Origin: Dugong dugon
Taxonomy: Eukaryota; Chordata; Mammalia; Sirenia; Dugongidae
Length of the DNA stretch: 64,000 nucleotides
Assembly (NCBI GenBank): GCA_030035585.1
Contig: CM057476.1
Location: 22,242,501 to 22,306,500 of the forward strand
Direction of reading: 5' to 3'
The position numbers and the translations under genes were made by a program. A model generated the notes under the pieces. The model saw only the letters and a program-made list of their open reading frames with translations, searched no databases and had not been told where the DNA came from. The number at the start of each line of letters is the position of its first letter. Within the stretch, counting starts at the first letter, position 1. Below, one piece after another: positions 1,281 through 21,899 of this stretch.

Positions 1281-2164
1281 AAAGCTTTATAATAAGAATA
1301 AAAGGGACGGTTTAGTAGTCTTCCGACGGAGCCACTGTCTCCAAGTCTTCCTCTGAGGTAGACTGAGTCGCTCCCTCTCTCCCCTCCTCAGACAAGGGTC
1401 CCTCCACTGCCCTGTGTACTGATTCCATCTCCAGGTCCTCCATGCTGCTGGTGTGCTCCCTCAGCCCACCCCACAGGCTGCCAAGAGAGCAGGGCAGCCA
1501 GCCCTGGAGCACTACCCTCAGGGACAACAGGAGCAGGGTTAGCCGCTCGGCGCCACACGTGAAGGCTAGTACAGCCACAAGCCGGTCCTTCAGTGTCCTA
1601 CAGGAGCTGGGAGGGAATGAAGGGAGCCAGTAGCACTGGTGGTGCCGGACAGCTAGAGCTGACCGGGAGTCCAGTCATTCACCAAGGCATAACAAGAAAA
1701 GCTAGGAGCACGTGGGAGGCAGGGGCGTGGCTGGAGATGACAAGAGGGCAGCGGTCAGGACGGACAACTATCCATGAGCATGGACAGCAGGGGTGACCCA
1801 AGTCCTTTTAGGGCCTTGGCTGCCCCCTAGTCCTGTGCCTACCTTTAAACCATGATATTGGTGGCTTCTTGACCTTCAGTGGCCTATAACCACCATGTGG
1901 GGCTCCCCTTCGCCTGGAAACTCTGTGGAAGGGAAACTGTTAGCACTGGGATCTTCCTCCCTTCCTTGCGTGGAGGAAGGACACCATCCCTTCCCAGTCC
2001 CTAGCGGAGCCCAAAGCCAGGTTATTCCTTTAAGCAAGTCTGTCTTCATCTGCTAAGTGGGGGAAGGGGGCTGGGGGTAGGAGCAGCAAGGTTGTTACCT
2101 AGCAGATTCAGGAGAAAATAATTGAAGAACAGAATATCCATTAACGAGGTACTGTTTAAATTCT

Positions 2165-2337
2165 GGAGCCCGGGTGGTGAGGTGGTTAAGAGCCTGGCTA
2201 ACCAAAAGGTTGGCAGTTTGAATCCACCAGTGCTCCTTGGAAATCCTATGGGGCAGTTCTACTCTGTCCTATAGGGTTGCTATGAGTTAGAATCGACTCA
2301 ACGGCAACAGATTTAGTTTTGTTTTCTTTTGTTTTTG
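2165..2337 (+). repeat. AfroSINE copy
   Basis: tRNA-like head (ggagcccgggtggtg, gttaagagcctggctaacc, gttggcagtttgaatcc) and the RTE-type tail (tatgagttagaatcgactc), followed by a T-rich run. It lies in an intron of ZP relic A, in the antisense orientation. This family is restricted to Afrotheria. Confidence 0.85.
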
Positions 2338-3756
2338 TGAGGTGTAGGGGGAGAGTTTGGTTAAATTCTAGTACATCCATCTATGGATAATTATAAAATA
2401 TATTTGACCTACAGAGGTGCCCATAAATTCTAGAAGAGGAGGCATTTATAGAATATTACAAAAGCCAGACTATTATACTAATGTATGTATATAGCCAAAG
2501 CCACTTCAATGTGTCTACACTAAGACGCTAGTTAATTATCTGCGCGATAGAATGGTATCTTTTTGAAGCATCTCAACTTTCTACGAGTATTGTGTATTTG
2601 CTTTATTATATTTGTTTAGTAAGGGGGCAAAGGGGGGCAGGAGAACAAGTTATTTGAGCATCCATCATTGGACTTGGTACAGAGCAGGCACAAATCATGC
2701 CAGCTTCCTCCTCAAAGAACCCGCAGGACAGAGGAGGCAGCTAAACGTGACCAGCCAGCCCACAGCTGACCCCACCCAAGCCACACTCTCTTCCTATCCC
2801 CTCCCGCCCCACCAGCCCAAGATCCACACCCAGGACCTGCACTTTCCCCCCAGGCCACTTGGTGGATTCAGTGACATCCATCTGCCCACACAGCCAAAGC
2901 CCCTCCCCTAGAAGGACAGCCCTCTCCAAGCAGGGCAGCCCCCTCCCCCAACAGGGCAGCTTCCCATTGGCCTTCCTGGCATACTCCCACCCTGTCCCTT
3001 TGCACCACACTTCCTCTGGGAAGGAACAGCCAACGTCACAGCAATCTCAGATGGAACTTTTCCCCTTATCATCTGCAAGTTGCCAGCTGTCAATGGCAAA
3101 GGCAGAAAGACATGCCCAGTCAGTGGAGGGCAGGGGACAGTCGGCCTGGAGAGAGGGCCTGCCCCAGATCCCAATCCAGCCATGGCCATGTGAGGTGTGT
3201 GACAGCAGGCAGTCACTTGGCCTCTCTGGACTTTCCTTCCCTGGGTTGGCCTGTACTAGGGAAAGACTACCTCCATTTCCAGGGTAAAGATTCCCCACAA
3301 TGCAGGTGCAGCATCCTAGCACAGAGCCTCTGCCTTTCCCCACTGCTTGGCTCCCAGAACCCTGGCCATATATCATGGAAGCTAATGCTTTTCTTTTAAA
3401 AATGGCCGCCCTGAGACTCAGACCGGGGAAGCTTGAAATAGGAAGGGTTCACCTGTATGAGGAGGTGTTGTAGAGACAGGATTTCCGGCCAGGCTCAAAG
3501 GGTCTCGTCCAACTCCAGATGCTCATCCAGCAGATGATATAAACCTGGAAGGAGGGACCAAGGGAGAACTTGGGACTCCCCAGCCCAGGGGAGAGGGCTC
3601 CTCCTGGGCCTCTCAGCTCCTGGCACAGCACATGCCACCCTGTGCTGAACAATATTACACCTTCTTTTCTTCCCAAACTGGGCACCACCAGGGAGGAAGC
3701 CAGGCCAGCCTGTGACTGTCACAGCCCAGGCCATAAGAGGCCCCTGTTGTTGTCAA

Positions 3757-3968
3757 AGGTCCCTGGGTGGTGCAACGGTTTGTGCTCGACTACTAACCAA
3801 AAGGTTGGCAGTTCGAAACTACCCAGCAGCACTGTGGAAGAAAGGCCCGGCGATTTGCTTCTGTAAAGATGATAGTCAAGAAAATCCTATGGAGCTCAGT
3901 TTTACACATGGGGTCACCATGAGTCAGAATCGATTTAACGGCAATGGGTACAGGTTGTTGTTGTTGTT
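3757..3968 (+). repeat. AfroSINE copy
   Basis: Well preserved: aggtccctgggtggtgcaac head, A- and B-box-like tRNA segments, body cggcgatttgcttctgtaaag, tail gagtcagaatcgatttaacg and a (gtt)n end. It abuts a second SINE of opposite orientation at its 3' side. Confidence 0.9.
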
Positions 3969-4241
3969 AGCTGCCGTAGAGTCGGCCCTCAACTCAGGGT
4001 GACCCCAGGCACAACGGAACGAAACGCTGTCTGGTTCTGCACCATCCACCATGATCAGTTACAGATCAGACCATTGTGATTCATAGAGTTTTCATTGGCT
4101 GAAACTTGTTCAGCATCAGAGCAACACGCAAGCATCCATCGACAAACAGGTCATTGCTGCGCGTGAGGTGCGTTGGCAGCAATCCGACCGGGGTGTCCCG
4201 TGTGGAAGGTGAGAATTCTACCGCTGAACTACCACTGCCCC
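3961..4241 (-). repeat. SINE with tRNA-Gly head and RTE-derived body
   Basis: Read on the minus strand, 4241-4170 matches tRNA-Gly: GGTAGTTCAGCGGTAGA (A box), AATTCTCACCTTCCA at the anticodon arm, and a worn B box. The body (ctgaaacttgttcagcatc, gcatccatcgacaaacagg) matches the 5' region of the RTE copy at 33.3-33.45 kb. The tail (gttgttagctgccgtagagtc) matches the RTE 3' end at 29.88 kb. It is therefore a composite of a tRNA and both RTE ends, not a tRNA gene. Confidence 0.75.
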
Positions 4242-4540
4242 CTAGCAAGCCCTTAGAGGTAGAGAGAATGTCTCTGATCGTCTTGACCCATGAGCTTACT
4301 CTCAGCAACAAGGATGCTCACCGTAGCCCTGGTTTTGAACAGGGACAGTCTTGACCCTTTGGGTAGTTTCTGCAGTAGAGAACTGATTCAGTTACAACTG
4401 GGCCAGACAGCAGGGTTGTGTGTGGCTGTTAACTTTCGCAGGAAAATACAGAAATCCAATTTCCTATTCACAGAAATGATATTAAGTGGGAAAAGGGGAG
4501 GGCAGAAAACAGGTTCTAAAATGGCAAATATAATCTTATT

Positions 4541-4645
4541 TAGGACGTACTTATACTAAAAAAAAAAAAAAATCACTCATTGGTTATTGGAAGTTCACAT
4601 TGAACTGGGCATCCTGTACTTTCATTTGCTAAATCTGGTAACCCT
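4541..4645. repeat. MER53-like palindromic element, partial
   Basis: Right half of the palindrome: ggacgtacttatactaaaa, an A run, gaactgggcatcctgtac, ending CTGGTAACCCT. It sits 117 bp below the 109-nt exon of ZP relic A. Confidence 0.5.
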
Positions 4646-5277
4646 ATTAGGGAATCCAGCACTCCCTTCCTCTGACCCAAACAGCCCTTAGAAGGGAAGC
4701 AGATTAACAGGATCAGAGCCCCCAGACTCCAGCCAGGCCTGGGGCACCCCAGAGCCCTCACCTCATCCTCCTCCACATCATCATTGAGCGTGAAGGCTTC
4801 CACACTGAAATGCAGTGTCTCGTTATCCTTCCGGGACCAAGGGCCAGACCTGGGGCCTATTGAGAGGCACCTGGATGGGGGAAGAGATAGTCAAGGGGGC
4901 CATTGAGGCGGTCACCTGGGAGACTAGCAGGAACAGGTTTCCTGGGAAACCACAGAGGCCCAAACTATGGGCAGTTATGTTCAAGAGTGTTCGCTCCATA
5001 GTAGAGCTATGGGACAGACATGTTTAGCCTGAGCAAAGGCCACAAGTTACAAGGTCAGCCATGAGGAGTAAGATTCCAGGGCCACTGCAGCCACTCAACA
5101 GCCTGCACCCTAGCTGGGAAGAATAGCCCTGAACTCTGTCAAGTCACACACACAGCTCAGGTGGGCAGGTCCAGACTCAGGCAAGGTGAGGAGTAGCAGG
5201 CCAGACAAAAAAGGTTGGTCGCCAAGGATCTACTTTCTAGCCAGGGATTTTTTTAACATCACATGCACGTACAATAG

Positions 5278-5571
5278 GAGCCCTGCTGGTGCAGTAGTTA
5301 AAGCACTCGACTGCTAACCAAAAGATCGGCAGTTCCAACCTACCAGCCACTCCGAGGGAGAAAGATGTGGCAGTCTCCTTCCATAAAGATTTTACAGCCT
5401 TGGAAACCCTGTGTGCTCTGCTCTGTCTTATAGAGGTTCTATTCTGTCCTACAGAGTCTCTAGGGACTGGAATTCACTCAACAGTAATGGGTTCACATGC
5501 TAGCAAGGCAGACGGACCTCAGTGCACAAGTACCCCAACAGCCCAGCCAAGTGAGACCCAGGGGAGGAAGG
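5278..5571 (+). repeat. AfroSINE with an extra 78-bp non-SINE tail (copy 1)
   Basis: SINE part 5278-about 5493, with a duplicated tctgtcctacagag-type segment in its 3' half. From 5494 to 5571 follows sequence beginning cacatgctagcaaggcagac that is not part of the usual SINE. The same 78-bp tail follows the AfroSINE at 7281 with four transitions. The copy lies in an intron of ZP relic A, about 75 bp below the ZP-core exon. Confidence 0.75.
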
Positions 5572-6173
5572 AGTCTGGGGCAGCATTGGGCTTCAACTTG
5601 GAAGCAGCCCCCCTCCCTGCCCCTGTTCCTGGCAGCCCTACAGACCCCTGGTTGAAGATGAGGGCGTACATCCTCTGGGAGCGGTTCAGGTGCTGGCTCT
5701 GGGTGCCCACACACTCATCCACATAGAGCTTCATGGTCCCGTTTAACGCCAGCTGGATGTGGGCCTCGAGGGTCAGCCACAAGCCTTCCACGTAGGGGGA
5801 CAGCTCAGCAGCTGAGCAAAGAGGGGTATAAGGGCTATGTCTGGCAAGTAGTCGTGGCCACCATCCAGCAAGCACCCACTGTGTGCTAGGTAGGTAACAG
5901 GTGCTGTTCCAGCTGATCCTCAACAGTCCTTGAGGTATTTCTTATGCCTACTTTATAGATGGGGTGATAGAGGCTCAGAGAGGTGGTTGAACTTTGGTTC
6001 TCTTACCCTAGTTTGCTCATCTATCAAATAGGAGCATACCTGTCCCACCAAGGGGGGAAGACTAAAATCAGAAACAGGATGATGTATCCTTGCCAGGAAG
6101 CAGAGGCCAGTACAGCCCCTCATTCAGCCCCCCTTCACTGGCGAGCCCTGGGGGTCCACACACCACATGCTCT

Positions 6174-6174
<1 letters not shown>

Positions 6175-6212
<38 letters not shown>
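6175..6212 (+). repeat. (CA)n microsatellite
   Basis: About 18 CA units. It lies only about 16 bp inside the intron from the splice donor of the 6229-6381 exon of ZP relic A. Confidence 0.95.
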
Positions 6213-6213
<1 letters not shown>

Positions 6214-6879
6214 CAGTCCAAGACTCACCAGGTAGCACCTGGAGTACCACCTGTAGGCCCTGTGTGGTGTGCTGTGAAGACTCCTTGAAGGGGTCCTTTG
6301 GAGGGCCAGGTGGGACCTGTGTCTGACTGGCTGCAGCTGAGCTGTTCACTGCCTGCCAGAAGAGCAGTCTGGGCTGCATGGCTGCAGGGTGAAGAGAGGT
6401 AGGCAGCAGGTCAAGGGGATGCAGCAGGTCCCTCAACTGACTGGATGGAAAGTTCCTTCAGGTAGGCAGGGAAACTGCTCAAATCAGCTTCCCTAGCATG
6501 GGAAAGCATAGTAAGAGCTGCCTTCCTAGCGGCCTGCAAGATGTAGGCCATTCCATTCTGTTGACCTCACAACTGTCCCCATTTTACAAATGTGGAAAGT
6601 GAGGCTGGCAAGTCCCACTGTCACATGCCCACAGTAACACGGAGTCGTGAGCTGCGGAATTCATACTGAAACTCCCAAGCTAGGGCTCTGGCAGAGATCT
6701 TTAAAGATTAGAGTTGTTTTATGGCAAGATACAGATGACACTAAATAGTCAGTAAATGAAAACCAAGTTTACCCACCTATTCCCTCTCCCTATGAGTAAC
6801 AACTTTTTGTTGGCGTGTGTGCACCTGGCCTGTGTGTGAGCAGATTTGTATAAATGTGCTCACCCCAGCAAGGTCCCCA

Positions 6880-7140
6880 CTTAATTCTTTTTTTAATTGT
6901 TGTAAAAAAACTACAGTTAACACAACATTTGCTAATTCAGCATTTGTCACTGGTACAATTCAATGACACCAATTACATCAAACATGTTGTGCAACCATCT
7001 CCAGTATACATATTCCATATTTTCCATTCCCCTAAACAAAAACTGAAAGCTAGCTAGACAAACATCTCCCTCTCACCCATCCCTGGTAACCAGTTAAACT
7101 TTGCTTTGTGCACATTTGTCTGTTTTACCCACTTAATTCT
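6880..7140 (-). repeat. Old L1 (L1M-type) 3' fragment
   Basis: Contains tacaattcaatgacaccaat and catgttgtgcaaccatctcc, the worn signature of the 3' untranslated part of old mammalian L1 elements, read on the minus strand. It is too decayed for a subfamily. MIR-like sequence lies at about 6580-6660 (ttttacaaatgtggaaag). Confidence 0.6.
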
Positions 7141-7280
7141 TTTTACTATTTGGGCTCCTATGCCTTGCCACACTGCCTTTAAGAGTGATTATCTAGCCCA
7201 GAGGGCCTGGGGCAGACCAAGGAAATGAAAGAGGGAGTTTGGGTTTCTCTTTTTTTTTTAAGAGGAGTAGAATTTAAGGA

Positions 7281-7599
7281 AGAAGCCCTGGTGGCACAAT
7301 AGGTAAGTGCTCCACTGCTGTCTGAAAAGTTGGTGGTTTGAACTCACCCAGGGGCTCCGTGGGAGAAAAACCTGGTGATCTGCTTCTGTAAAGATTACAG
7401 TCAAGAAAACCCTCTGCGGGCAGTTCTACTCTGTCACATGGGGTTCTGCTCTGTCCTGTAGAGGTTCTACTCTGTCCTATAGAGTCTATGTGGGTTGGAA
7501 TTGACTCAACAGCAATGGGTTCACATGCTAGCAAGGCAGACAGACCTCAATGCACGAGTACCCCAACAGCCCAGCCAAGCGAGACCCAGGGGAGGAAGG
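7281..7599 (+). repeat. AfroSINE with an extra 78-bp non-SINE tail (copy 2)
   Basis: SINE part 7281-about 7521, then the tail 7522-7599 beginning cacatgctagcaaggcagac. The tail is about 95% identical to that at 5494-5571, while the SINE heads are much more divergent. Both tails stop at the same point (ggaggaagg). Confidence 0.75.
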
Positions 7600-8220
7600 G
7601 AATCATCTCAAAGGCAACAACAGCATCTAAGGCATCCAGTCAGTGTTTGCATGCCAGGCCTTGCCCCAGAGGCCAGGGGGGCAGGATGGGGTGGTCCCAG
7701 AGCTCAGCCTAGCTGAGCCGACTACTCTGGGCTCCTGAGTTCCTGCCAGCCTGGGGCAAGCCAGAAAGCCTCCCCAGAGACAGTGTGAAGGAAGGAGGAG
7801 AGGAATGGGTGCCCCAGGGTCCCTGTGTCCTCAGCCCTCTGTGGGGGTAGAAGCAGGGAACCCCCAGGGGCGGGGGACATTGTGAGGTGGGGCTGAGTGT
7901 GGGGGGGTTACCCAGCAGAGCGACTCAGAGGCCATCAGGAGAGATGTCGCCTCCTCCCTGTGTCCCAGGATGCCAAGTCCTGCTCCTGCTGCAGCCCAGG
8001 TGGGGAGTGGGAGGATAGAGGGGCAAAGGGGGGTTGGTAGAATGAGTTACCCTGGAGGGGATTCCCCAGGTCCATGGCTGGCAGGGAAGGCTCAGCTCAG
8101 GGGCAGGGAGTGCTGGAGGAGGAGGAGGTGCCCACCTTAGGTCCCAAGGCACCCCATCCCCCAGACCTCACCAAGCAACAAGACTACAGCATCCAGCAGA
8201 AGCCCCCTGGAGGCAGCCAT

Positions 8221-9680
8221 AGTGAAGATAAATCATTGCCCAATCCCCCCACAAGCCTCCTTAAATTGGCGCAGAGGAGGCTAGGGAAGGAACAAGCGCC
8301 ACTTGGAGACCACAGGTGAGCCAAGTGCTTGGCTGAGGTGGGCTCTGGCCAAATACTTCCACATTCCCCCACCTGCAACCCCTCCACCTGTCTGCAGTGC
8401 CTTCCGATTTTAGGAAAATCCCAAGTCGTCCTCACTCACATAAGGTCTAATAAGAATAGTTAAGAGTCCACACTGATTGAAGGCTTACTGCACAGTGGAC
8501 TTGATGTTCTCATCTACAAGAGGCCATCAGGGTGGCACCTGCTGCATAGGATTGCTATGAGGGTTACATAACACAAAAGTCAGCTCAGTGCCTGGCAGAG
8601 TAAGAGCTCCATCTTGTCCAAGTGTAGAGATGAGGGTGATCGTCGAGGGTGCTGTCCAGCAAGGTGATTCTATCTGGGGGAAGTAGTCCGGAAGGGTTCG
8701 TGGAGAAGGTTATCATTAGAGCTGTTGGGAATCATGGAAAATACCAGAACAGAGGAAGGACTGGGGTAAAGAGGGATATAGTCACCAGTGTGATCAGATC
8801 AGAAGAATGTTCCTTTCTGCATTGGGAATTTAAGGAGTTCCCAGGCTTTTAGTTTGTATAAGTAAGACCACAATGATTATCCTTCCACACACATCTTTGG
8901 ACGATTGTCCAGTTATTTCCTCAGAATAAATTCTTAGGCGTGCAATTCTTGAACCATATGATTGGTATATTTTATATCTGAGTTAGTCATCAGATGGAAC
9001 AATTCAATCATTTCCCCTTGAACTGGATGTCACTTTTCACAACAATAATGGCCAGTATTTGTGGAGCTTTAAGTATGAGACCTGCCCTGGCTGAATGCTT
9101 TGTGAGCAATTTCTCTTGAAGCAGCTCCAGGAGGTCATTACTGAGAATTATCTTATGTCACAGTGAGGAAACCAAGGCTCAGAGAGGTTAGGTAACTCAC
9201 CCAAGTTCACAAAGCTTGTGAGTCAGCTCTGCCCCTGACTCTGTAGAGGGCCACAGGCTGGAAGGTGGTAGGCATGGAAGTTCAAGGCTGGGGTTCCATA
9301 CCAGCTCTACCAGGAGAATGCATGGGCTTGGGCCAGTGACTCAAGTTCTTTGAACCTGAGTTCCTCTTCCAGGAAACAGGGACCTAGCAGTACCATCTCA
9401 CAATGTGATTGTACAGATTAAATGAGCCACATCACATGAAGTGCTTAGCACAGGATCTGGTGCATACTAGGAGCAGTTCACCAACAAATAGCATTATCAA
9501 CAACCCTAGAAGCACTCTGAGCTGGCAGGACCTCTGGGCATGTTGGGAGGTGCTGCCCCCCTGTGGTGGTGCTGAGCATTGTGTGGAGCCGGCCGCTACT
9601 GAGACCCAACTCCCAGCATGCTCTGGGGCAAAGGCCTCAAGGCCTAGGGAGGGGAAAGACTTCTCCTCTCTTCCCCTAGG
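8221..9680. other. Spacer upstream of ZP relic A
   Basis: No coding signal recognised. It holds a MIR-like stretch at about 9120-9230 (aaccaaggctcagagaggtt). A short element at about 9598-9622, cccaactcccagcatgctc, resembles the ZNF143-type promoter motif, without supporting CpG richness. Confidence 0.4.
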
Positions 9681-9893
9681 TCCCTGGTGGCACAAACAGT
9701 TCACCCTCAACCACTAACTTAAAGGTTGGCAGTTTGAACCCAACCAGAGGCACTGCAGAAGAAAGTCCTGGCAGTCTGCCTCTGTAAAGATTACAGTCAA
9801 GAAAACCCTATGGAGTAGTTCTACTCTATAACACATGGGATCGCTATGAGTTGGAATCCATTCGATGGCAACAGGTTTGGTTGTTGTTGGGCT
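9680..9893 (+). repeat. AfroSINE copy
   Basis: aggtccctggtggcacaaac head, ggttggcagtttgaaccc B-box region, ccctatggagtagttctac, tail gctatgagttggaatccatt and a gttgttgttggg end. Confidence 0.9.
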
Positions 9894-10061
9894 TTTTTTC
9901 TCTTCACCATCATACCAGTAGGGATAGGCCCCATGCAGAAGCAAGGATATCGAAGAACAGGAAGAAAATTGTAATTTCCCTAGCACCTGCCACCTCTTAT
10001 CTGGTTGACCCCGCTACACCTGTTTCCCCATCCATCCATCAAATGGGGACAATCCACTTAA

Positions 10062-11061
10062 TTGTGCTTATGAGGAACCTATATATAGATCAAGAGGCAG
10101 TTGTTTGAACAGAACAAGAGGATACTGCATGGTTTAAAGTCAGGAAAGGTGTGCATCAGGGTTTTACCCTTTCACCATGCCTATTCAATCTGTATGCTGA
10201 GCAAATAATCCGAGAAGCTGGACTATAGGAAGAATGGGGCATCAGGATTGGAGGAACACTCATTAACAACCTGCATTATACAGATGTCACAACCTTGCTT
10301 GCTAAAAGTAAAGAGGACTTGAAGCACTTACTGATCAAGATCAAAGACCACAGCCTTCGGTATGGATTACACCTCAACATAAAGAAGACAAAAATGCTCA
10401 CAACTGGACCAATAAGCAGCATCGTGATAGACAGGAAAAAGACTGAAGTTATCGAGGATTTCATTTTACTTGGCTCCACAATCAACACCCATGGAAACAG
10501 CAGTCAAGAAATCAAAAGACACATTGCATTGGGCAAATCTGCTGCAAAAGACCACTTTAAAGTGTTGAAAAGCAAAGATGTCACCTTGAAGACTAAGGTG
10601 CACCTGACCCAAGCCATGGTGTTTTCAGTCACCTCCTATGCATGTGAAAGCTGGATGATGAATAAAGAAGACTGGAGAAGAACTGATGCCTCTGAATTGT
10701 GGTGTTGGAGCAGAATATTGAATATACCATGGACTGCGAAAAGAATGAACAAATCTGTCTTGGAAGAGGCACAACCAGAACGCTCCTTAGAAGCAAGGAT
10801 GGCGAGACTACATCTCACATACACTGGACGTGTTATCAGAAGGGATCAGTCCCTGGAGAAGGACATCATGCTTGGTAAAGTAGAGGGTCAGAGAAAAAGA
10901 GGAAGACCCTCAGTGAGATGGATTCACACAGTGGCTGCAACAATGGGCTTAAGTGTAACAATGATTGTGAGTATAGCGCAGGACCGGGCAGTGTTTTGTT
11001 CTGTTGTACATAGGGTCGCTTTGAGTTCGAACTGACTCGATGGCACCTAACAACAACACCA
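10062..11061 (+). mobile_element. RTE-type LINE, 5'-truncated 3' kilobase
   Basis: The 3' part of the single RTE reading frame: RT palm to C terminus. A continuous frame runs 10295-11035 and includes SKEDLKHLLIKIKDHS, LRYGLHLNIKKTKML and the C-terminal motif [16 protein letters not shown]. The catalytic YADD box is degenerate (YTDV at about 10275), so it is dead. The 3' end is gagttcgaactgactcgatg then cacctaacaacaac, the tail shared with AfroSINE. The endonuclease half is absent. Confidence 0.88.
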
Positions 11062-11211: not shown

Positions 11212-11383
11212 GGACTGCCAGATAAATACAGAACGCCCAGTTAAATCTGAATTTCAGATAAACAGTGAATAATTTTTTTATTGTAAGTATGTCCTATGCA
11301 ATGTTAGGGACATACTTATACTAACAAAGTACTTGTTGCTTATCTGACATTCACATTTAGCTGGGCATCCTGTATTTTATTTG
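11212..11383. repeat. MER53-like palindrome, left part, split by an L1
   Basis: gactgccagataaatacag through gtatgtcctatgcaatgtta and its inverted partner, up to catcctgtattttatttg. The element resumes at 14957 after the L1 block and ends at 14992 (ctgacaaccct). This copy shows the full palindrome best. Confidence 0.65.
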
Positions 11384-12731
11384 TGTGTGTGCTTTAAGTG
11401 AAAGTTTACACTTCAAGTTAGTTTCTCATACAAAAATTTATACACACGTTGTTATGTGACCCTAGCTGCTCTCCCTATAATTTGACAGCACACTCCTCCT
11501 TTCCACCTTGGATTTCCCATGTCCATTCAACCAGCTCCTGCCCCTTTTTGTCTTCTCATCTTGCCTTTGGATAGGAGCTGCCCATTCAGTCTCATGTATC
11601 TACTTGAGCTAAGAAGCACTCTCTTTACGAGTATCATATTATGTCTTATACTCTAATCTTTGTCTGAAGAGTTGGCTTTGGAAATAGTTTCGGTTCTGGG
11701 CTAACAGAGAGTCTGGGGACCATGTCTTCCGGGGTCACTCCAGTCTCAGTCAGACCATTAAGTCTGGTCTTTGTATTAGAATTTGAGTTCTGCACCCCAC
11801 TTTTCTCCTGCTCCGTCAGGGACTCTCTGTTGTGTTCCCTGTTAGGGCGGCCATTGGTGGTAACCGGGCACCATCTAGTTCTTCTGGTCTCAGGCTGATG
11901 GAGTCTCTGGTTTATGTCTGTCTCCTGGGCTAATACTTTCCTTGTGTCTTTGGTGTTCTTCATTCTCCTTTGCTCCATGTGGGTTGGGACCAGTTGATGC
12001 ACCTTAGATGGCTACTTGCTAGCTTTTAAAGACCCCAGACACCACTCACCAAAGTGGAATGCAGAACATTTTCTTAATAAACTTTGTTATGCCAGTTGAC
12101 CTAGATGTCCCCTGAAACCATGGTCCCCAGACTCCTGCCCCTGCTACTCTGTCCCTCAAAGTGTTTGGCTGTATTCAGGAAACTTCTCAGATTTTGGTTT
12201 AATCCAGTTGTGCTGAATTCCCCTGTATTGTGTGTTGTCCTTCTTCACCTAAGATAATTCTTAGCTACTATCTAGTTAGTGAATACTCCTCTCCCTCCCT
12301 CGCCACCCTTGTAACCATCAAAGAATGTTTTCTTCTGTGTTTAAACCTTTTCTTAAATTCTTATAATAGTGGTCTCATACAGTATTTGTCCTTTTGCATC
12401 TGACTAATTTCACTCAGCATAATGCCTTCCAGATTCATCCATGTTATGATACTTTTGAAGATTCATCGTTGTTCTTTATCACTGTGTAGTATTCCATTGT
12501 GTGAATTTATCAAAATTTGTTTATCCATTTGTCCGTTGATGGGCACCTAGGTTGCTTCCATCTTTTTGCTACTGCAAACAGTGCTGCAATGAACACGGGT
12601 GTGCATATATCTATTCATGTGACGGCTCTTATTTCTCTAGGATGTATTCCAAGGAGTGGGATTGCTGGATCGTATGGTACTTTTATTTCTAGCTTTTTAA
12701 GGAAGCACCAAAGTGGTTGTACCATTTTACG
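11384..12731 (-). mobile_element. L1 3' end (ORF2 C terminus and 3' UTR)
   Basis: Read on the minus strand, the 12.6-12.7 kb part encodes the typical L1 ORF2 end (KVPYDPAIPLLGIHP). It is followed by the lineage-style 3' UTR, which also occurs at 41.5-42.7 kb in the opposite orientation. Its outer edge at 11384 is flanked by an 18-bp direct repeat (catcctgtattttatttg, 11366-11383) that recurs at 14957-14975. The whole 11384-14956 block therefore behaves as one insertion. Confidence 0.8.
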
Positions 12732-12734
12732 TTC

Positions 12735-14699
12735 CCGGAGGCAGGGCCAAGATGGCAGAGCAGTCAGACGCTTCCAGTGGTCCCTCTTACAACAAAGACC
12801 AAAAAAAACAAGTGAATCGATTACATATGACAATCTAGGAGCCCTGAATATCAATGGCAGAGTTGAGGAATTGGACTGAGTGGAAGGGGGAGGGAGAGAC
12901 AGTTCAGAAGCAGCAAGGAGTTGCCAGACCTGACCTGGCAGGAACTGACACCCTGCAAGCCGGATAAGCTGGCATGCACAGTGAGGCAAACAGTGGCATT
13001 CGAAACGCATTTCCTACATTGGGAGAGACCAAGCAGTGGAGAGTTGATTCAAGCCTCCAGAACCAGTGAAAAGCGGCACTCAGTCAGCAAAAGATAAGTA
13101 CATGCATCTAACTTACCTCACGGATCAAAAAACACCCTGTTTGGGAAGAACATCTCTCCCATTTACCTTCTCCCTCCCTGCTCTGCACCGGGTCCTGGGC
13201 CAGCTTCAGTGACTGTGGCATTCCCTCGGCCAGAAGTAGGACCTCACGTGCCCTGAGCCATTCTCTGGGCCTTGGAGAGGGAACAAATTAACAAACAGGA
13301 AAAAGTAATCTGCCAGCTCCCCTAAGCCAGGAACTCAGGGCAGGCACAGCTCCCTAGGCACAGGCATGAGGGGTCCACACACTTTGAATGCCTTTCACCA
13401 CTCCATAGGCCTGTGTGGGCCCATTTCAACAGGGTAGGACCTCATTAGCACAGTACAACAGGGTATATACCTGAAGCCTAACTTCAACTGTATCAGCTAT
13501 ATGGTGGAGTGTCAGGTTTGTGACATTTGACACCACTCTGCCCATTAAGCAGGGCCCTCACCTACCCACATCAGGGGCCTGAGGACTGGTGGCTCTGCCC
13601 ATGCCACCTAGCCACCTGTGACAGGGGTCCAAGAATAAGTGGTGCATTGGGTGTCCATAGTCCGGCTGCAAAACCTACCCACCTATGCACTCTAGGGAAC
13701 AGGGACATGCTTTCCTCGAAGACACTCAGGGGCATCTGTCAGCCCCCTGCCTTGCTCAGTGCATGATTCCCTACTGCAGACAGATACCTGTGCCTACTCC
13801 AATCACCCCTGCCTGTCTAGGACTGTAGGTGAGAGCCTGCACCACACACTTGGTGACCGACTACCTGGACACCTGAGCTGAATCCATACAAGAAAAGTAA
13901 ATGGATTCCTGGGCTCACATACCTAGTAACAGATCTAACCACCTGGTGACAGGACGTTAGAGCTTCAAAGGTGCCAATAATCAAACTAGCTCACACGAGC
14001 AGCCTATTTAGGCATACCAAAACAAAACAAGAAGCTAGGACACAGTAAGCAAACATAAAATAAATAAATATAATAACTTACTGATGGCTCTGAGACAATA
14101 GTCAATATCAAATCGTATAAAGAGGCAGACCATGATGGCTTCAGCAAGCTCCTAAAACAAAGAATCAAGAAATCTTCTGAAGAGAACCTCTTGGAATTAC
14201 CAGAGGCAGAATACAAAAGATTAACATACAGAACTCTTCAAGAGATCAGGAAGGAGATCATGCAAAATCTAGAGCAAGCCAAGGAACACATAGACAAAGC
14301 AATAGAGGAAATTAAAAAGATTATAGAAGAGCACAGTAACAAATTTAACAGGCTGCAAGAATCCACAGAAAGACAGCAAATAGAAATCCAGAAGATTAAC
14401 AATAAAATTTCAGGATTAGTCAACTCAACGGAAAGTCACAGGAGCAGAACTGAGGCAATGGAAGTCAGAATGAGTGAAATTGAAGATAAAGCACTTGACA
14501 CCAACTTATTTGAGGAAAAATCAGAAAAAAGAATTTAAAAAAATTAAGAAACCCTAAGAATTATATGGGACTCTATCAAGAGAAATAACCTATGAGCAAT
14601 TGGAGTACTACAACGGGGGAATAACAGCATCGTGAAAGATGAGAAGATATCTATCCAAGATGCTCATCGAACCCCACACAAGGTAGATCCTGAACGCCA
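12735..14699 (+). mobile_element. L1 5' UTR and partial ORF1, inverted relative to its flanks
   Basis: Starts near ggaggcagggccaagatgg, the classic L1 5' end, and runs through about 1.45 kb of 5' UTR into ORF1. A coiled-coil-rich ORF1 N-terminal frame lies at 14191-14538 (QEIRKEIMQNLEQAKEHIDK). Beyond it the frame is broken, but ETLRIIWDSIKRN and HKVDPER still match the ORF1 RNA-binding part. It stops at about 14699 in a short overlap (gaacgccac) with the next, oppositely oriented L1 5' end. Confidence 0.8.
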
Positions 14700-14956
14700 C
14701 TGCTTGCCTCACCATGCATGCCAGCTGATCCCACCTGCAGGGTGTTGGTTCCTGCCAGGTCAGGTCTGGCAACTCCTCGCTACTTCTGAATCTTCTCTCC
14801 CTCCCCCTGCCACTCAGTCCAATTCCTCAACTTTGCCTTTGATGTTCAGGGCTCCTAGATTGTCATATATAATTGATTCACTTGTTTTTTCTGGTCTTTG
14901 TTGTAAGAGGGACCACTGGAAGTGTCTGACTACTCCACTATCTTGGCCCTGCCTCA
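14690..14956 (-). mobile_element. L1 5' UTR end, minus orientation
   Basis: The reverse complement begins gaggcagggccaagatag and follows the 12735-13007 segment for about 265 bp with roughly 88% identity by eye. Many of the differences are at CpG sites. It forms a head-to-head inverted repeat with that segment, separated by 1.7 kb. Confidence 0.8.
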
Positions 14957-14992
14957 CATCCTGTATTTTTATTTGTTAAATCTGACAACCCT
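14957..14992. repeat. MER53-like palindrome, right remnant after the L1
   Basis: catcctgtatttttatttg is the second copy of the target duplication and also continues the MER53-like element interrupted at 11383. It ends tctgacaaccct. Confidence 0.6.
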
Positions 14993-16160
14993 ATTCCCAA
15001 GGGTTCGATAGCAAGGGGGGCTGAGCTGCCTGGGCAAGGGTACAAGCCATTCTGTGCGAGGCACTTCCAGCTTCTCATTTCAGCCCTCACAAGCCAGTGG
15101 GAGGGGTCTCCACCACCCCTCCTCCCCTTTCACAGCGAGGCCACTGAGGCGCCCACTGCTCAAAGGCTCACAGCTGATGTGCACAGAGCAGGAGTCAGGT
15201 CCTGGGGTTGGGCTGGGCTGCAGCCTCCAGGTAGAATAGACCATGGCCCTGGCCTCAGGCTCCTGGAGAGGAGGGAAGGTCGAGATTGCTACAAGCTGTT
15301 ACCACCATGATGGAGGAAGCAAGGGTTGGAGGGAGCCCAGAGGCGGCTCCCAAGCCAGGGTAAGGGTGAAAGGTTTCCTTGAAGGGTTGAACTGTGGGAT
15401 CAACGGGCTATAATCAGGGGAGGGTGTGCCTGCAGGAAGGGGTAGGAAAGGCGTGGAAGGGAGTGTCCCATTTGGAAGGGATAGTGTAAGAAATGCTGGA
15501 GTCAAGAAACCAAAAAGGACAGAAAGGCAGAAATGAAGATTTGGGGTAAGAAAGTGAGGAAGGTATGTATGGTGGTAGTGGAAGTAGCTGGCAGGAGAGG
15601 GAGGAGTCATCGCCATCATACAGGGCCTTGAGTGTGTGACCTTGGGCAGATCCTTTCCCTTTCCAGGTCTGTTGCCCCAAGTGTAAAATGAGAGCATTAG
15701 GTTGGTTTGCCGCTTAAGCTTCTAGTCTAATCTTTATTTACAGATACCTGGAAACCCCTTCATCTCTACTGGTACAACCTCTGATCTGTGCCCTTCTGAG
15801 AGTTTGAGAGGAGACAGAGGGCTCTTAGTCATTCACACCACAGTGTAAACAACAGATTATTTTTTCAGAGCATGAACTCTGTTCTGAACGTTTGAAGAAG
15901 TGGAAAAGTAAACCTGGAGACGGGTCCAGGTCTTCGCCATCCTGCAGGGGCCCCACCTGCTCGGCCCCCTGCCCAAATACTAAAGGGGCGGAGGGAGAAG
16001 TAGGCCTGAGCCCAGCTTCCCTGTGGCTGCCACCTCACTCCCCCACCGACCCAAGCCCACACCGGGAACACCGCCTCACCAGAGGCCCAGCTCTGGCCCC
16101 TGCTCTGGGGGCCTCATTTTCCCAGCTGTCACAGGAAAATTAGACAAGTTAAAGCCAGCA
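14993..16160. other. Spacer between the two ZP3-like relics
   Basis: No coding exon recognised. Weak MIR/L2-like phrases occur at 15635-15690 (gaccttgggcagatcctttcc, split here as gaccttgggc and agatcctttcc). Confidence 0.35.
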
Positions 16161-16168
16161 GTGAATAT

Positions 16169-16174
16169 CTCTTT
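16169..16174 (-). terminator. Polyadenylation signal of ZP relic B
   Basis: AATAAA on the minus strand (plus TTTATT), about 35 bp past the stop codon of the transmembrane-tail exon of ZP relic B. Confidence 0.6.
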
Positions 16175-17308
16175 ATTGGAAAGACCTGGTGGGGAGGGGG
16201 GCTTCCTCAGACCCTGCAGCCCAGACCTGCAGCTGAACATGTGGCCAGGCTCTGGGCCCAGAGCCAGCGGCAGCGGGTGAAGACACATAACCCCACACCC
16301 AGGACAAACATCAATGCCACCTCCAGGAGCAGAGTCCCGGCCATCGGTGTCAGCAAGCTGGGGAGGCTTCCTGGTACAAGGAGGGGCTGCTTAGGGCCTG
16401 GAAAGGCAGGGAGTACACTGGCAGGGGCAAGGAGGGGTCCAGTAACAGCCCTGGCCACCCCGAACCATGTTGTTTACATATGAGAGACAGTACACGGCTC
16501 CTGGGTTCAGCTCATTCTTCTGTGACCTCAAGCCTCAGTCTCCTCATCTAGAAAGTGGAGCTGATTGTGTCTACTGCATAGGATTATTGGGAGGATTAAA
16601 CGAGATTAGGCATAGAAAGTGGAAGTCCATGCCTGTACTTGGTAGGGTAGCATTTATTAACAACATATAGTGGGTGTCAGTTAATCTTCAGGGTAAGGAA
16701 GCTCAGAGAGTAAGTGGCTTCCAGGGTGACAAGGTGAGCAAGCTTACAGTCAGCTGGCCTGATGGTTCAGGCTGTGCTCTAGCAGGCCCCAAACAGAGGC
16801 AGTGGGGCTATGGTCAGGGGAGAAGGAGGCAGCCAGAGCCAGGTTCTTCTGGGACCGATCAAGGACCACTGGACTTGAGGCCCAGTGTCTCTCACTGGAA
16901 GGGGACCCCAAGAAGGGCCCAGGCTCTAGGAGAGACTTTCCTTACTCACCTCTGAGTCTCCTGGAGTCAGAAGCCTGACTCAACTCAGACAGGGCAGTTT
17001 CTTCTGTCACTCGGTCAAAGGCCCCCTCAGGGACCTACCCGAAGGCTGGAAGACAAAGACACCCCGACCGAAAGGGTGTTAAACTACCCCTACACACACA
17101 CACCCATACACTGAACCTGCTAACCTTGACGTGTCAGCTCACTGTTCCTGGAGGTTAAGTGAGAGAGGAGTAACTATGACATGAGTTACTAAGAGCCTTC
17201 TCCCTCCTCTCTAAAACTCCCAGAAGGGCACAGATCAGGGGTTGTATTGGTGCAAATGAAGGAGTCTCCAGGTATCTGTAAATAAAGATTATACTAAAAG
17301 CTCAAAAG

Positions 17309-17505
17309 GAGTCCCTGGATGGTGCAAATGGTTAAGTGCTCAACAATTAGCCAAAAGATTGGTGGTTCGAACACACCCTGAAGCACCTTGGAAGACAGGC
17401 AAGCAGATCTGTGAAAGGTCACAGCCTTGAAAGCATTGTGGAGCACAGTACTACCCTGCATACATGGGGTTGCCGTGATGTGACTTGACAGCAGCTAACA
17501 ACAAC
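17309..17505 (+). repeat. AfroSINE copy with 13-bp target duplication
   Basis: agtccctggatggtgcaaat head and gacttgacagcagctaac tail. It is flanked by aaaagctcaaaag on both sides (17296-17308 and 17506-17518). It lies in an intron near the 3' end of ZP relic B, with a MIR-like stretch just beyond (17535-17610, gaaactgaggcccagagag). Confidence 0.9.
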
Positions 17506-18296
17506 AAAAGCTCAAAAGTGGTAAACCAGCCTAATGCTCTCATTTCACACTTGGGGAAACTGAGGCCCAGAGAGGGAAAGGATTGCCCAAGGTCACACAG
17601 AGTAGGAGGCTCCCCAGACAGGGGCCAGCCCCTTTCTTGGTTCTACTGATCAACGTGTTACTTCAACTGGGTCTTTGCAGTTCAGGAGGCCAATGTCAGC
17701 CTCCTCAAAAGTCTTTAGGAGCAAGATGGTGCCTTCTGCAGGCCCACCCACACAGGATCGTGAGTGGCTCCCAGGGCCAACTGCCTCCCCAGCCTCAGAG
17801 CTCACACCTTCCCCCCAAACCAGGGGGCTCCTACCTGATAGGGCCCTTTGATGGGGTGACCGTGGGACTGGGCAGGTAACCTCACAACAGTTACACGTAC
17901 TGCTCAGGGAGGCATTGTCCAGAAGTTCCCACCTATAGGGACGATGAGGATGGGGTAGAGAAGGGTCTGCTTAAGTCAGTGCACCAGAAACTGGAGACCC
18001 CAAAGCCCAGACCTGTATTTTACAGGTGAAGAAACTGAGCCTTACAAAAGTTCAGTGACTTGCCCATGATGCCACAGCCAACAAAAATTGGAACTGGGAT
18101 TCGAACCTGTGTCTCAAGCAGAGTCCGAAGTCTCCATTCCCAATATACCTCACACTTCTAGGCCAAGGCAATTAAGGCTGGTTTGGCTGGCCATGGGGAA
18201 CTATTACAAGAGGGCCAAGCTTTTTGGAAAGTTAGTCTGAGCCACTTTGAGCCTCAGTTTCCTCTTCTGCCAAAACCCTAGCTCCCAGGCAATTAA

Positions 18297-18511
18297 AAAC
18301 AAAACAAAACAGTTGCCAGTCAAGTAGACTCTGACTTATGGCAACCCCACGTGCATCAGAGTAGAAATGTGCTCCATGGGGATTTCAATGACTGATTTTT
18401 CAGAAGGGGATTGCCAGGCCTTTCTTCCAAGGCACCTCTGGATGGACTCAAACCTCCAACCTTCCAGTTAACAGCTAAGTGTGTTAATCATTCGCACCAC
18501 CAGGGACTCCC
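18297..18511 (-). repeat. AfroSINE copy, minus
   Basis: Reverse complement of the family: head cctggtggtgcgaatgatt, tail at gttgccagtcaagtagac. The phrase caggcaattaa occurs on both flanks, consistent with a target duplication. It lies 83 bp from the 92-nt exon of ZP relic B. Confidence 0.88.
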
Positions 18512-21500
18512 ACAGGCAATTAATGAGGTCATACACATTAAACACCTGTTACAGGCTAGGGCATGCAGTACACTTTCAGTGTATATGACTCACCTGTTCG
18601 TGTCCCTGTGGAAGGAGCAGGCTTTCGTGGTAGCATCAGATGGGACCTTTGGGTCCCAAGCTAGCAGCTGGCAGTGGACATAAACCTGTGGGGACAGAGA
18701 CCCCAGGCTGAGGAAATGTGGGGAGACGGGGGTGGGGATTCAGGCCCTGAAGGCACCTGCTTCCACTCACGTCATCAGGAGAATCGGCAAAACTGAAGGC
18801 CTGGAAGGAGAGCTCCAGTCTCTGGGGGACCTCTCAAGGGAAGAAGCGGGAACGGGCATCCTTGCCATCCACCAAGCACCTGGAAGGCCCAGGTTGGAGG
18901 TCAGCATGGCCCAGAGGACAAACCTGAACGGGGGTCTAGCCCCAGTCTGGTCTCAAACTATCACACACCATCATTTGTTGAGAGTTCTGCATGCTGGGCC
19001 CTGAGCTAAGCATCTCCCCGTTCAGCCTATCTACACAACAGCGCTATGAAGATTCTGGCACTCTCCTCATTTTACAGCGGGGCAGAGGCAACTGAGGTGA
19101 AGAAGCCAGTAAAGGGCTCTTGTGCCAGAGACAACCACCCAAGAACTCCCAGAGGACACCATTTGGACATCTGTCTCTTCTAGCTCTAGACAGGCTCTCA
19201 GCCCCTGCCCTAGCCTCCCCAGAGACGCCACCGACTGAATAGTCTACACCCTACCCTGTCTCCCTCACCCAGGTCCAGTACCCATGATGCCCAATGAAGG
19301 TGTAGTACACAGGGGCCACTTCCAGATCCCGGCTGGGGCTGGTCACACACTCATCCACATATAGCTGTAAGGGCTGATGGGAGCTGCCAAACACGGCAAA
19401 TTCCACATGGAGCTCAGAGCCTAGGAAAATAGTGCTGGTGTTGGCCCCATCCTGGGCTGGAATGAAAACCAAATGGGGAGGACACGAGGCTCTGAGACAT
19501 TGAGGGGCTTGCCCAAGGCCACACAGCAAGAGGGAGGCAGGCAAAGCTGGGACCAGGTCATCAGAAGCCCGGGCCCTTCCCCCGCTGCCACCCGGCCCTT
19601 CATCTCTTCCTGCTCTCACCAGGGGTATATTAGCTTGGAACTGGACGCACAGGAGCCCCTGAACCAGGGACCCTTCCCCTTGGGGCACTGCCTCAGCCCA
19701 GCTGATGCCCCCCACGTGCGGGAAGGGATGAATCAGGTCAAAGCCTGAAGTCCAGATGTCCAAGCCCAGCCAGAGATCCAGTAACTGAGGAGACTGGGGG
19801 CGAGATGGGGGCATTAATGGGAGCCTGGCATGTCAGGGTGACCAGAAAGCAAACACTTAAGGCTCATGACAAGTTCCCAGGACAGCCCAGCCAGAGAAGG
19901 GGACAGGAGAGAAGCATCCCGGAGAATCCCAAGTTCCAAATACAGACTCCCAGGCCAGTCTGGCTCACACCAAGGGGGCCATGAGATCGCTGCCTGCTCT
20001 CCTGGACCACTGGAAGAGGTAGCCCTCCCAGCCCCCTTATAGCCTCCTGCAGGATCTCCGGGGGTGCAGGGCCCAAGATGGGCTAAGGGGCAGTAGACAG
20101 TGCTCACTGCTTGGCTGTGCAGCTGACTCAAAGGCGGAAGGCAGGAATAGGGGGCTGCTCTGAGCGACTAGGTGGGGGCGTGTTGACCAGGTTAGCAAAG
20201 AATTCCACCATCTTCCCTGAGATCTGAGGGGATACCAGCGCCTTAAGAAGCCAGGACGACTATCTCCCCAGCTTGGTCCTACCTCATTGTGTGGCATCAG
20301 TCACTTGCTCTCTCTGGGCCTCAGTTTCCTTTCTAGGACATGCTCAACTTCCATTCTCACTCAAAAACTTTGAAGAATGATGTGCTAAATTGCACCTGGT
20401 GGCAGACAGAGGGGCCTTCCCCTCTGTGAACCTTGGTTTCCTCATCTGGAAAACAGGATGATAGTTCCACCTCCCTCGTAGAACTGTTGAGTATGAAAGG
20501 AACAAATACAAGCAAGGGCATGTGGTAAACATGCAGATGACAAATAGCAAGTTTGCATCATGCCCTTGGCCACCAAATTCTGTACATTCAGGCCTTTGCT
20601 TCTTTTAGAAAAAGGAAACAGGCTCAGAGAGGCTGTGGCCTGCCCAAGGTCACACAGCAAGTCAGTATGATCTGATTCTACCCCTTTCTCCAGCCCAGGT
20701 ACCCCAGCTCTGCATCTCTCCCCCAAAATCTCCCAGGTACCCTCAGGCTCCTGACAGCCTTGTCCCCATTAGCCTCAACAGGCCCTTCACCAGCCGGATG
20801 AAGCCATAAGCCTTAAATGGGGCAGCAAAGACCACATAGCCAGGCATGATGGGGACCAGGGAGGGTGGGCAGGAACCAAGACGCAGGTGGCGGCCATCGA
20901 GCTGGGGCTCCCTCCTCACTGCCAGGAGGACCTTTGTCTGCTTACATTCCTGCAGGAGGTTGTCCCCTGGCAGCCCAGCCCAGGCTGGTGTGCAGAGAAT
21001 GGCCTAGGTCAGGGTGTGGCCAGCAGAGCCTGCCCAGAACCCTCCCCAACTGTACCCACTTCCCCATTCAGTCCACTGTTCCAGCGTGGAGCAGGAGCCA
21101 GGTAAGGTATATCTGAGGTCCACAGACTTTCTCCCCTCCACCGTGGCCTGCGGAGCCTGAGAGCCCCTCATGTGAGCACCTACTACGTGCTAGTCCCCAG
21201 GACGCAAAGATGAAGAGCCATGGGCTCTTGACATCTGTGCATGTGCACACCAGTAGTTCTTTACAAGGCGGGACCACCAGCGAGGAAACCAGGGACCAGA
21301 GGGGGCTCACAGAGGGCTCAGCTAAGGGGCAGTGGTCCTGAAGGATGCTCAGAGCTGCCCAAGAGGAAAGGGATTTCCAGCCAAGTGTGGGGCTCAGAGG
21401 CACAGGAGGGTAGGTGATGGAGAGGAGGATAAGGCTGGGGCATGCTGACAGCTTAGACTATAGACCAGGAACACAGAAGCCGGAAGCAGACCTGGTCAGT

Positions 21501-21899
21501 CCTAGCGTTAGGGAGAGCCCTGAGGCTGGAAGCTGGAGTGAGCAAGGAATTCGTGGGAGATATCACAGGGATGCAGGCGCCACAGGGGAGGTGGGAGGGA
21601 GGGGATGGGAGAATGCTAGGTGGTTATCAGCCTGAGCAGGGATGTGGGAACTGGGGGGAGAAGAATGGGAATGAGGGAGACTCAGAGCACTTAAGGGGGC
21701 CAGAGGGAGCAGCAGTAGACTGGGCAGAGGTCGGGCGGGTGGGGCTTGGGAAGGGGACCTGGCCAGCATGGGGCAAGAAGGGTGGCAGGGAAAGGCCCAC
21801 CCCACCCTGAGGGACTCCCAGCCCCAGAGGAAGTCGTCAGACTCACCCTGTAGCTGCAGACACCACCAGAGCAGGAACCACGATCTCATCATCCCCATC

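What the first reader, a model, noticed from the sequence alone, without database searches (positions are those of the whole stretch)
1312..21898. Two tandem ZP3-like egg-coat genes beside MTFP1, both apparently decaying
Two separate minus-strand genes show the ZP3 layout: signal peptide, ZP domain with LYVDECV, a CLVDG/CLSIG exon of 109 nt, a YVHC/YIIC exon of 92 nt, a CNCCE/DCCDVGC exon, and a hydrophobic tail. Exon lengths and phases match between the copies, so they arose by duplication. I do not know of a ZP3 paralogue in this chromosomal neighbourhood in well-annotated placentals. They could be the last traces of an ancestral ZP3-like locus lost elsewhere.
Basis: partly seen in the sequence, partly recalled or inferred. 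Interest (0 to 1): 0.88.

Follow-up and report, generated by a model that had tools for sequence, protein, structure and literature searches.

The report
Two dead ZP3-like genes beside MTFP1
Next to MTFP1 this genome carries two broken relatives of the egg-coat gene ZP3: one is the wreck of a gene that turtles and lizards still have, the other is a stripped-down version whose protein-coding counterpart is annotated, undescribed, in a sloth and a tenrec.

Summary
Two minus-strand ZP3-related genes lie between MTFP1 and a SEC14L3-like gene, and both are pseudogenes here. Gene B (21898-16207) is the mammalian remnant of a full-length "ZP3-like" gene annotated in turtles, lizards and alligator (47-55% identity over ZP-C and the stretch after it). 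It has three in-frame TGA codons and a lost ZP-N cysteine. It is not ordinary ZP3, which lies on another contig. It is probably the ZP3.2 subfamily, whose pseudogenes are reported in panda, cat and opossum. Gene A (8220-1312) is the surprise. The only relatives found are "uncharacterized" proteins of a sloth (E 9e-95) and a tenrec. They keep eight ZP-C cysteines, two hydrophobic patches and a membrane-like segment, but show no ZP-N domain and no RxK/RR furin site before the outer patch. That is a standalone ZP-C architecture, reported only from nematodes in the passages I read. Here gene A has two frame breaks and a TGA at a ZP-C cysteine. So "both decaying" holds here, but "last traces" does not: gene B's lineage survives in reptiles, gene A's apparently in sloth and tenrec. 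Expression and function are untested.

The parts
21847..21898 (-). gene B exon 1: start codon and hydrophobic signal-like peptide
   Evidence: drawn there one base shorter; the GT donor follows 21847; by position and translation only
20791..20984 (-). gene B exon 2: first half of ZP-N; one ZP-N cysteine replaced (YGF where sauropsids have CGF, CSF or CNF), 5 codons shorter
   Evidence: sauropsid ZP-N profile 30.2 bits
20115..20223 (-). gene B exon 3: second half of ZP-N, in-frame TGA at about 20130-20128; 3' end as listed has no GT donor
   Evidence: profile 17.9 bits against shuffle best 3.6
19738..19806 (-). gene B exon 4 remnant (linker/internal patch), in-frame TGA at about 19740-19738; boundaries not fixed
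   Evidence: 6 of 7 sauropsid pieces hit here by tblastn, E 8.4e-4 to 0.16 in a 1,050-base stretch
19282..19456 (-). gene B exon 5: ZP-C with LYVDECV
18771..18879 (-). gene B exon 6 (109 nt, CLVDG), in-frame TGA at about 18836-18834
18594..18685 (-). gene B exon 7 (92 nt, YVHC)
17835..17932 (-). gene B exon 8 (CNCCE)
16207..16397 (-). gene B last exon: transmembrane-like tail (GTLLLEVAL..., turtles GALLLEVAL...), stop at 16207; the exon(s) between exon 8 and this one not identified
   Evidence: read beside turtle proteins
8172..8220 (-). gene A exon 1: start codon and signal-like peptide
   Evidence: 9 of 16 residues as in sloth
7912..8051 (-). gene A exon 2: non-ZP N-terminal stretch; frame break near 7956; edges uncertain (out of phase with exons 1 and 3 as drawn)
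6229..6381 (-). gene A exon 3: linker with hydrophobic strand LQVVLQV
   Evidence: strand 95-101 in the sloth model
5646..5811 (-). gene A exon 4: ZP-C with LYVDECV
4762..4870 (-). gene A exon 5 (109 nt, CLSIG)
3453..3544 (-). gene A exon 6 (92 nt, YIIC)
2991..3086 (-). gene A exon 7 (DCCDVGC); TGA at about 3049-3047 where sloth and tenrec have the first cysteine of CxCC; donor uncertain
1843..1922 (-). gene A exon 8: external-patch-like PLKVKK; frame break near 1882
1312..1606 (-). gene A exon 9: hydrophobic segment and acidic tail, open to its stop
23079..25794 (-). MTFP1, upstream neighbour
   Evidence: read; Pfam MTP18 E 7.1e-20 on the typed exon chain

Best explanation
The locus is a relic of two old ZP3-family genes. 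Gene B was a full egg-coat-type ZP module (signal peptide, ZP-N, ZP-C, membrane tail), the mammalian counterpart of the sauropsid ZP3-like gene and probably the ZP3.2 subfamily. It is dead here. Gene A descends from the same family but lost ZP-N and the furin site. Its product in sloth and tenrec is best read as a membrane-anchored, uncleaved, eight-cysteine standalone ZP-C glycoprotein. Without ZP-N it should not polymerise as ZP3 does. With both hydrophobic patches kept and no cleavage site it should stay folded and tethered, presenting ZP-C as a binding or dimerising surface. Shown: architecture in the database models, relatives, lesions, place. Inferred: the subfamily name, selection in sloth and tenrec, membrane topology, the binding role. 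In this genome gene A is dead too: the TGA falls on a ZP-C cysteine, before the outer patch and the membrane segment.
For: Gene B: 4 of 4 proteins found at E<=0.001, of 293 candidates, are reptile proteins, two of them named ZP3-like. It joins 11 sauropsid proteins with 95.3/97 support. Canonical ZP3 is elsewhere (C12). Gene A: 3 of 3 proteins found at E<=0.01, of 6,422 candidates, are the sloth (two isoforms) and the tenrec. Pfam finds ZP-C but no ZP-N in either. The four ZP-N cysteines of Natator have no counterpart in sloth; the eight ZP-C cysteines all do, in sloth and tenrec. RxK/RR lies between the last ZP-C cysteine and the outer patch in 10 of 10 sauropsid proteins checked and 0 of 2 gene A proteins (P0003 left out, it has RHQR). 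No ZP-N remnant lies between A exons 1 and 3 (best -3.5 bits; the best of 100 shuffles is 3.6), while the gene B control scores 30.2 and 17.9. Sloth-window identity is higher in ZP-C, 104 of 147, than in three other exons, 74 of 152 (Fisher p 1.5e-4). No further copy was reported in this genome (4 of 4 matches in the window).
Against: No DNA of sloth or tenrec was available, so no dN/dS; the proteins are database models. The tenrec model starts inside exon 3 and lacks a signal peptide, so it may be incomplete or partly decayed. No expression data. The Pfam ZP-N model is insensitive here: it passes its cut-off, narrowly, in 2 of 3 sauropsid relatives and misses Caretta, so its silence on gene A alone is weak. 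The structure model has mean pLDDT 49, and an antibody domain ranks 8th in its fold search. Gene A's long branch and the assumed root may distort its placement. The tree puts window A with sloth rather than tenrec (70/86), against the expected order if the window is afrotherian. The protein search needs shared 5-mers; one search did not list four known relatives (P0002, P0003, P0004 and the tenrec protein), so absences there mean little.
Confidence: 0.75

Rival explanations
1. Gene A is dead in all mammals; the sloth and tenrec entries are over-predictions from a pseudogene that happens to be open.
For: The tenrec model lacks the first exons and a signal peptide; sloth isoform X2 lacks much of ZP-C; fast divergence outside ZP-C. 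A recent death is not excluded: at 0.05 neutral substitutions per site an open frame has probability 0.002 (sloth) and 0.011 (tenrec).
Against: At 0.1-0.2 substitutions per site the probabilities fall to 5e-6 to 2e-11 (369 codons) and 1e-4 to 1e-8 (273 codons) (assumed indel rate 0.1 per substitution). ZP-C is better kept than three other exons, and all eight ZP-C cysteines are kept in both species.
Confidence: 0.2
2. Gene A is a therian or placental tandem copy of gene B that evolved very fast, not an older paralogue.
For: The two lie head to tail about 8 kb apart, with equal 109 and 92 nt exons. A+B monophyly is not rejected by KH (0.065) or SH (0.2). Long-branch attraction would pull A outward.
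Against: With the root assumed on canonical ZP3, the best tree puts A outside B + sauropsids (97 ultrafast bootstrap for B + sauropsids); AU p 0.037 against A+B. No sauropsid gene A was found, so the older date needs losses.
Confidence: 0.4
3. Either gene is a canonical ZP3 copy or another ZP family (ZP1/2/4, uromodulin type).
For: The ZP-C fold is shared by all.
Against: Solved-structure matches at E<=1e-3 are ZP3 only; uromodulin appears at E 0.7 for B. B is 33% identical to chicken ZP3 but 47-55% to sauropsid ZP3-like proteins. This genome's own ZP3 exons lie on C12. ZP1, ZP2 and ZP4 were not put in the tree.
Confidence: 0.03

Closest known systems
ZP3-like proteins of turtles, lizards and alligator (probably ZP3.2 of Feng et al. 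2018, PMC6262864)
   Same: Gene B: ZP-N plus ZP-C in the same order, membrane-like tail; 47-55% identity over 152-153 residues.
   Different: Gene B is broken by three TGA codons and a lost ZP-N cysteine. Assignment to ZP3.2 rather than ZP3.3 is inferred; that paper reports ZP3.3 only from Neopterygii and Sauria.
ZP3.2 pseudogenes reported in panda, cat and opossum (PMC6262864; text parts 1-3 of 5 read, supplement not open to me)
   Same: A decayed ZP3-like gene in a mammal.
   Different: The main text names neither MTFP1 nor SEC14L, and the parts I read report no ZP-N-less neighbour. Whether those pseudogenes lie at this locus is unknown to me.
Standalone ZP-C proteins of nematodes (Weadick 2020, PMC7456536; passages read)
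   Same: ZP-C without ZP-N, signal peptide predicted for most, R/K cleavage site generally lacking, as in gene A.
   Different: Independent origin: gene A derives from the vertebrate ZP3 family and keeps a transmembrane-like segment.
Betaglycan ZP-C (3qw9) and C. elegans LET-653 (PMC7665627; passages read)
   Same: ZP-C can fold and act without ZP-N; the LET-653 ZP-C has eight cysteines, as ZP3 and gene A do.
   Different: LET-653 has ZP-N, and so, as I recall, does betaglycan. The structural likeness rests on a low-confidence model.

Membership tests
ZP3-like gene of sauropsids (gene B) | ZP-C domain | tested here: met
   PF00100 E 1.8e-19
ZP3-like gene of sauropsids (gene B) | ZP-N domain | tested here: met
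   Sauropsid ZP-N profiles 30.2 and 17.9 bits, shuffles up to 3.6; Pfam ZP-N itself was not reached (query without exon 3)
ZP3-like gene of sauropsids (gene B) | groups with them, apart from canonical ZP3 | tested here: met
   95.3/97; only two canonical ZP3 sequences in the tree
ZP3-like gene of sauropsids (gene B) | same chromosomal neighbours in reptiles | not testable with these tools
   no reptile genome DNA held
ZP3.2 subfamily | groups with Xenopus and Anolis ZP3.2 | not tested
   reference sequences not fetched; inferred from the distribution in PMC6262864
functional gene (A and B in this genome) | undamaged reading frame | tested here: not met
   B: TGA in three exons; A: TGA in exon 7, frame breaks in exons 2 and 8
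standalone ZP-C protein (gene A in sloth and tenrec) | ZP-C present with its cysteines | tested here: met
   E 5.1e-10 and 9.4e-10; eight of eight cysteines in both
standalone ZP-C protein (gene A in sloth and tenrec) | ZP-N absent | tested here: met
   no PF23344 at E<=1 (an insensitive model here); no cysteine before ZP-C; no ZP-N exon in the window's gene A. The tenrec N-terminus may be incomplete
standalone ZP-C protein (gene A in sloth and tenrec) | maintained by selection | tested here: inconclusive
   frame survival estimate and uneven identity; no DNA for dN/dS
standalone ZP-C protein (gene A in sloth and tenrec) | made as protein | not testable with these tools
   no RNA or proteome data

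The most novel reading that the evidence does not exclude
Gene A is an undescribed ZP3-family paralogue older than the split of mammals and reptiles. It discarded ZP-N and its furin site and still works in sloths and tenrecs as a membrane-tethered standalone ZP-C protein, the first such in a vertebrate. It has died in the lineage of this genome, beside the corpse of the ZP3.2-type gene.
Probability: 0.4. Interest if true: 0.78.

Novelty: new variant of a known kind. Interest (0 to 1): 0.6.

Why it matters
The review PMC8005149 (section 2.2 read) says that most placental mammals keep four egg-coat genes and that other ZP3 branches were lost. A second ZP3-family lineage with open frames in a xenarthran and an afrotherian would mean that the inventory is incomplete. 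A ZP-C that has outlived its ZP-N would also give vertebrate workers a natural test of what ZP-C does alone, a question raised by the nematode work. The dead copies here give a syntenic marker (MTFP1 to SEC14L3) for finding the rest and dating the losses.

Tried and rejected
Canonical ZP3 copy: rejected, since this genome's ZP3 exons are on C12. A recent A/B duplication: not favoured but not excluded. A decayed ZP-N exon between gene A exons 1 and 3: a weak tblastn hint near 7819-7693 (E 8.6) did not survive a profile test with shuffles. Reading the gene A TGA as selenocysteine (it replaces a cysteine): considered and dropped, because frame breaks elsewhere kill the gene anyway; no SECIS search was run beyond the Rfam gathering scan, which listed only a mir-1302 match. 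PF00100 over the whole genome gave 23 places, none in this window: single exons here score too low, so that search says nothing against the locus. A first Fisher test from BLAST pieces (p 1.2e-6) is replaced (p 1.5e-4), which leaves out exons 2 and 8 because of their frame breaks. The ORF list was not used for domain searches. Literature searches returned no paper; others returned listings. None of the listed titles and abstract starts, nor the passages I read, names this locus or a vertebrate standalone ZP-C gene; the library holds open-licence papers only. All allowed protein and paper searches are used.
Full report
What is there. Reading the minus strand and assembling exons gives two genes below MTFP1. 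Gene B runs 21898-16207 and gene A 8220-1312. The ZP-C exons of both (A4-A7, B5-B8) have AG acceptors and GT donors in agreeing phases. Two exon lengths are identical between the genes, 109 and 92 nt. Pfam gives ZP-C for both, and in the Protein Data Bank the matches at E<=1e-3 are ZP3 for both. This is far beyond chance.

Where it is. The typed MTFP1 exon chain hits Pfam MTP18. A SEC14L2 tail exon lies at about 29.1 kb, and its paralogue, a SEC14L3-like last exon, lies about 2.6 kb below the window start on the opposite strand. The names SEC14L2 and SEC14L3 are recalled, not from a call. The assembly is 3.16 Gb in 196 contigs and unnamed; that it is afrotherian rests on repeats that I recognise from memory.

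Gene B. All four proteins found at E<=0.001, of 293 candidates, are reptile; two bear the name ZP3-like. A profile search from both genes listed 10 proteins: eight sauropsid ones (Caretta again and seven new) and the two sloth isoforms. In a 17-sequence tree of ZP-C and the stretch after it, gene B groups with 11 sauropsid proteins (95.3/97). tblastn with these proteins recovers ZP-N parts 1 and 2, ZP-C and CxCC and, more weakly, the linker exon (6 of 7 pieces, E 8.4e-4 to 0.16). The last exon reads like the turtle membrane tail; what lies between it and exon 8 was not identified. Lesions: in-frame TGA in exons 3, 4 and 6, one ZP-N cysteine changed, five codons missing in exon 2. This genome also has canonical ZP3 exons at C12. 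Feng et al. (PMC6262864; text parts 1-3 of 5 read) report ZP3.2 pseudogenes in panda, cat and opossum and similar stretches in horse. The review PMC8005149 (section 2.2 and passages read) lists ZP3-2 in monotremes, while noting that the platypus set needs confirmation. Gene B is most simply that gene, but the subfamily name was not tested here.

Gene A. The only relatives at E<=0.01, of 6,422 candidates, are Choloepus didactylus LOC119519504 (isoforms X1 and X2) and Echinops telfairi LOC123521618, both called uncharacterized; one is a xenarthran, the other an afrotherian. X1 is 55% identical over 96% of my query. Against these, gene A here has a frame break in exon 2, a TGA in exon 7 where both relatives have a cysteine, and a frame break in exon 8. 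Exon 2 as I drew it is out of phase with exons 1 and 3, the exon 7 donor is uncertain, and the join of exons 8 and 9 is out of phase too; these may be further breaks or wrong edges. No other copy of gene A was reported in this genome.

Architecture of gene A. Pfam finds ZP-C in sloth and tenrec but no ZP-N at E<=1; the same model passes its cut-off narrowly in two of three sauropsid relatives and misses the third, so this alone is weak. The first cysteine of the sloth protein, C136, is the first ZP-C cysteine; the eight ZP-C cysteines align one to one with the turtle ones, while the four ZP-N cysteines have no partner. A profile of nine sauropsid ZP-N exons scores -3.5 bits at best between gene A exons 1 and 3, below the best of 100 block-shuffled sequences (3.6), while gene B gives 30.2. 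The RxK/RR site between the last ZP-C cysteine and the outer patch is in 10 of 10 sauropsid proteins checked and in neither gene A protein (one sauropsid protein, P0003, was not in that count and reads RHQR). A hydrophobic strand before ZP-C (LQVVLQV) and one after it (GPLKV) remain, and the model of the sloth protein shows both as strands, followed by a long helix. That model is weak (mean pLDDT 49, 14 sequences). Its six best Foldseek matches are ZP3 chains at TM-scores near 0.3; endoglin, an antibody domain and betaglycan ZP-C follow.

Is gene A alive in sloth and tenrec? Under drift an open frame of that length should not survive long: P about 5e-6 at 0.1 substitutions per site for sloth and 1e-4 for tenrec, but 0.002 and 0.011 at 0.05, with an assumed indel rate. 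Window and sloth agree at 104 of 147 ZP-C residues but 74 of 152 in three other exons (p 1.5e-4; exons 2 and 8 left out). Against this, the tenrec model starts inside exon 3 and has no signal peptide, sloth X2 skips much of ZP-C, and both are models. I recall that NCBI usually needs transcript support for alternative isoforms, which would hint at expression in sloth; this was not checked.

Age of gene A. With the root assumed on canonical ZP3, the best tree places A outside gene B and the sauropsids, in a group apart from the two canonical ZP3 sequences (92.7/96). Forcing A with B is rejected by AU (p 0.037) and not by KH or SH; forcing A with chicken ZP3 likewise gives AU 0.035, KH 0.074 and SH 0.18. 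The branch to A is the longest, so I leave the date open. A sits with sloth before tenrec (70/86), against the species order if the window is afrotherian.

How it most likely works. Weadick (PMC7456536; passages read) showed that standalone ZP-C proteins exist in nematodes, mostly keep signal peptides and generally lack cleavage sites, and said they had never been found before. PMC9154058 (passages read) cites independent ZP-C domains from C. elegans. PMC7665627 (passages read) showed a ZP-C acting without ZP-N. Gene A fits that picture from a vertebrate ZP3 ancestor: secreted-pathway entry, eight-cysteine ZP-C locked by its two patches, no cleavage, membrane anchor. A binding or dimerising role at the surface of an oocyte or other cell is inference.

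Verdict. Gene B is a known kind of relic at a locus that I found named in no paper seen. Gene A is a new variant: apparently a vertebrate ZP-C without ZP-N.

Noticed in passing
window 11275-11326 (+): Match to Rfam mir-1302 just above the gathering score (62.5 against 62), in a palindromic stretch; I take it for repeat-derived rather than a microRNA gene, from memory of that family.
   Followed up: no
window 32614-33309 (-) and 30.0-32.2 kb: Open frames that read like pieces of a LINE-type reverse transcriptase and endonuclease (from reading the translations; no family search run).
   Followed up: no
G000:C19:22239824-22239906 (L012): Last exon of a SEC14L3-like gene on the + strand, 87% identical over 83 bases to the SEC14L2 tail exon of the window: the two SEC14L genes flank MTFP1 and the ZP3-like pair.
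   Followed up: partly
P0007, sloth isoform X2: A sloth isoform joins YVDEC of exon 4 straight to exon 6, removing the second ZP-C cysteine; it may be noise or a sign of transcription.
   Followed up: no
G000:C12:106827084-106851185 and G000:C18:74163644-74339989: Clusters of ZP-C family matches in this genome, not identified.
   Followed up: no
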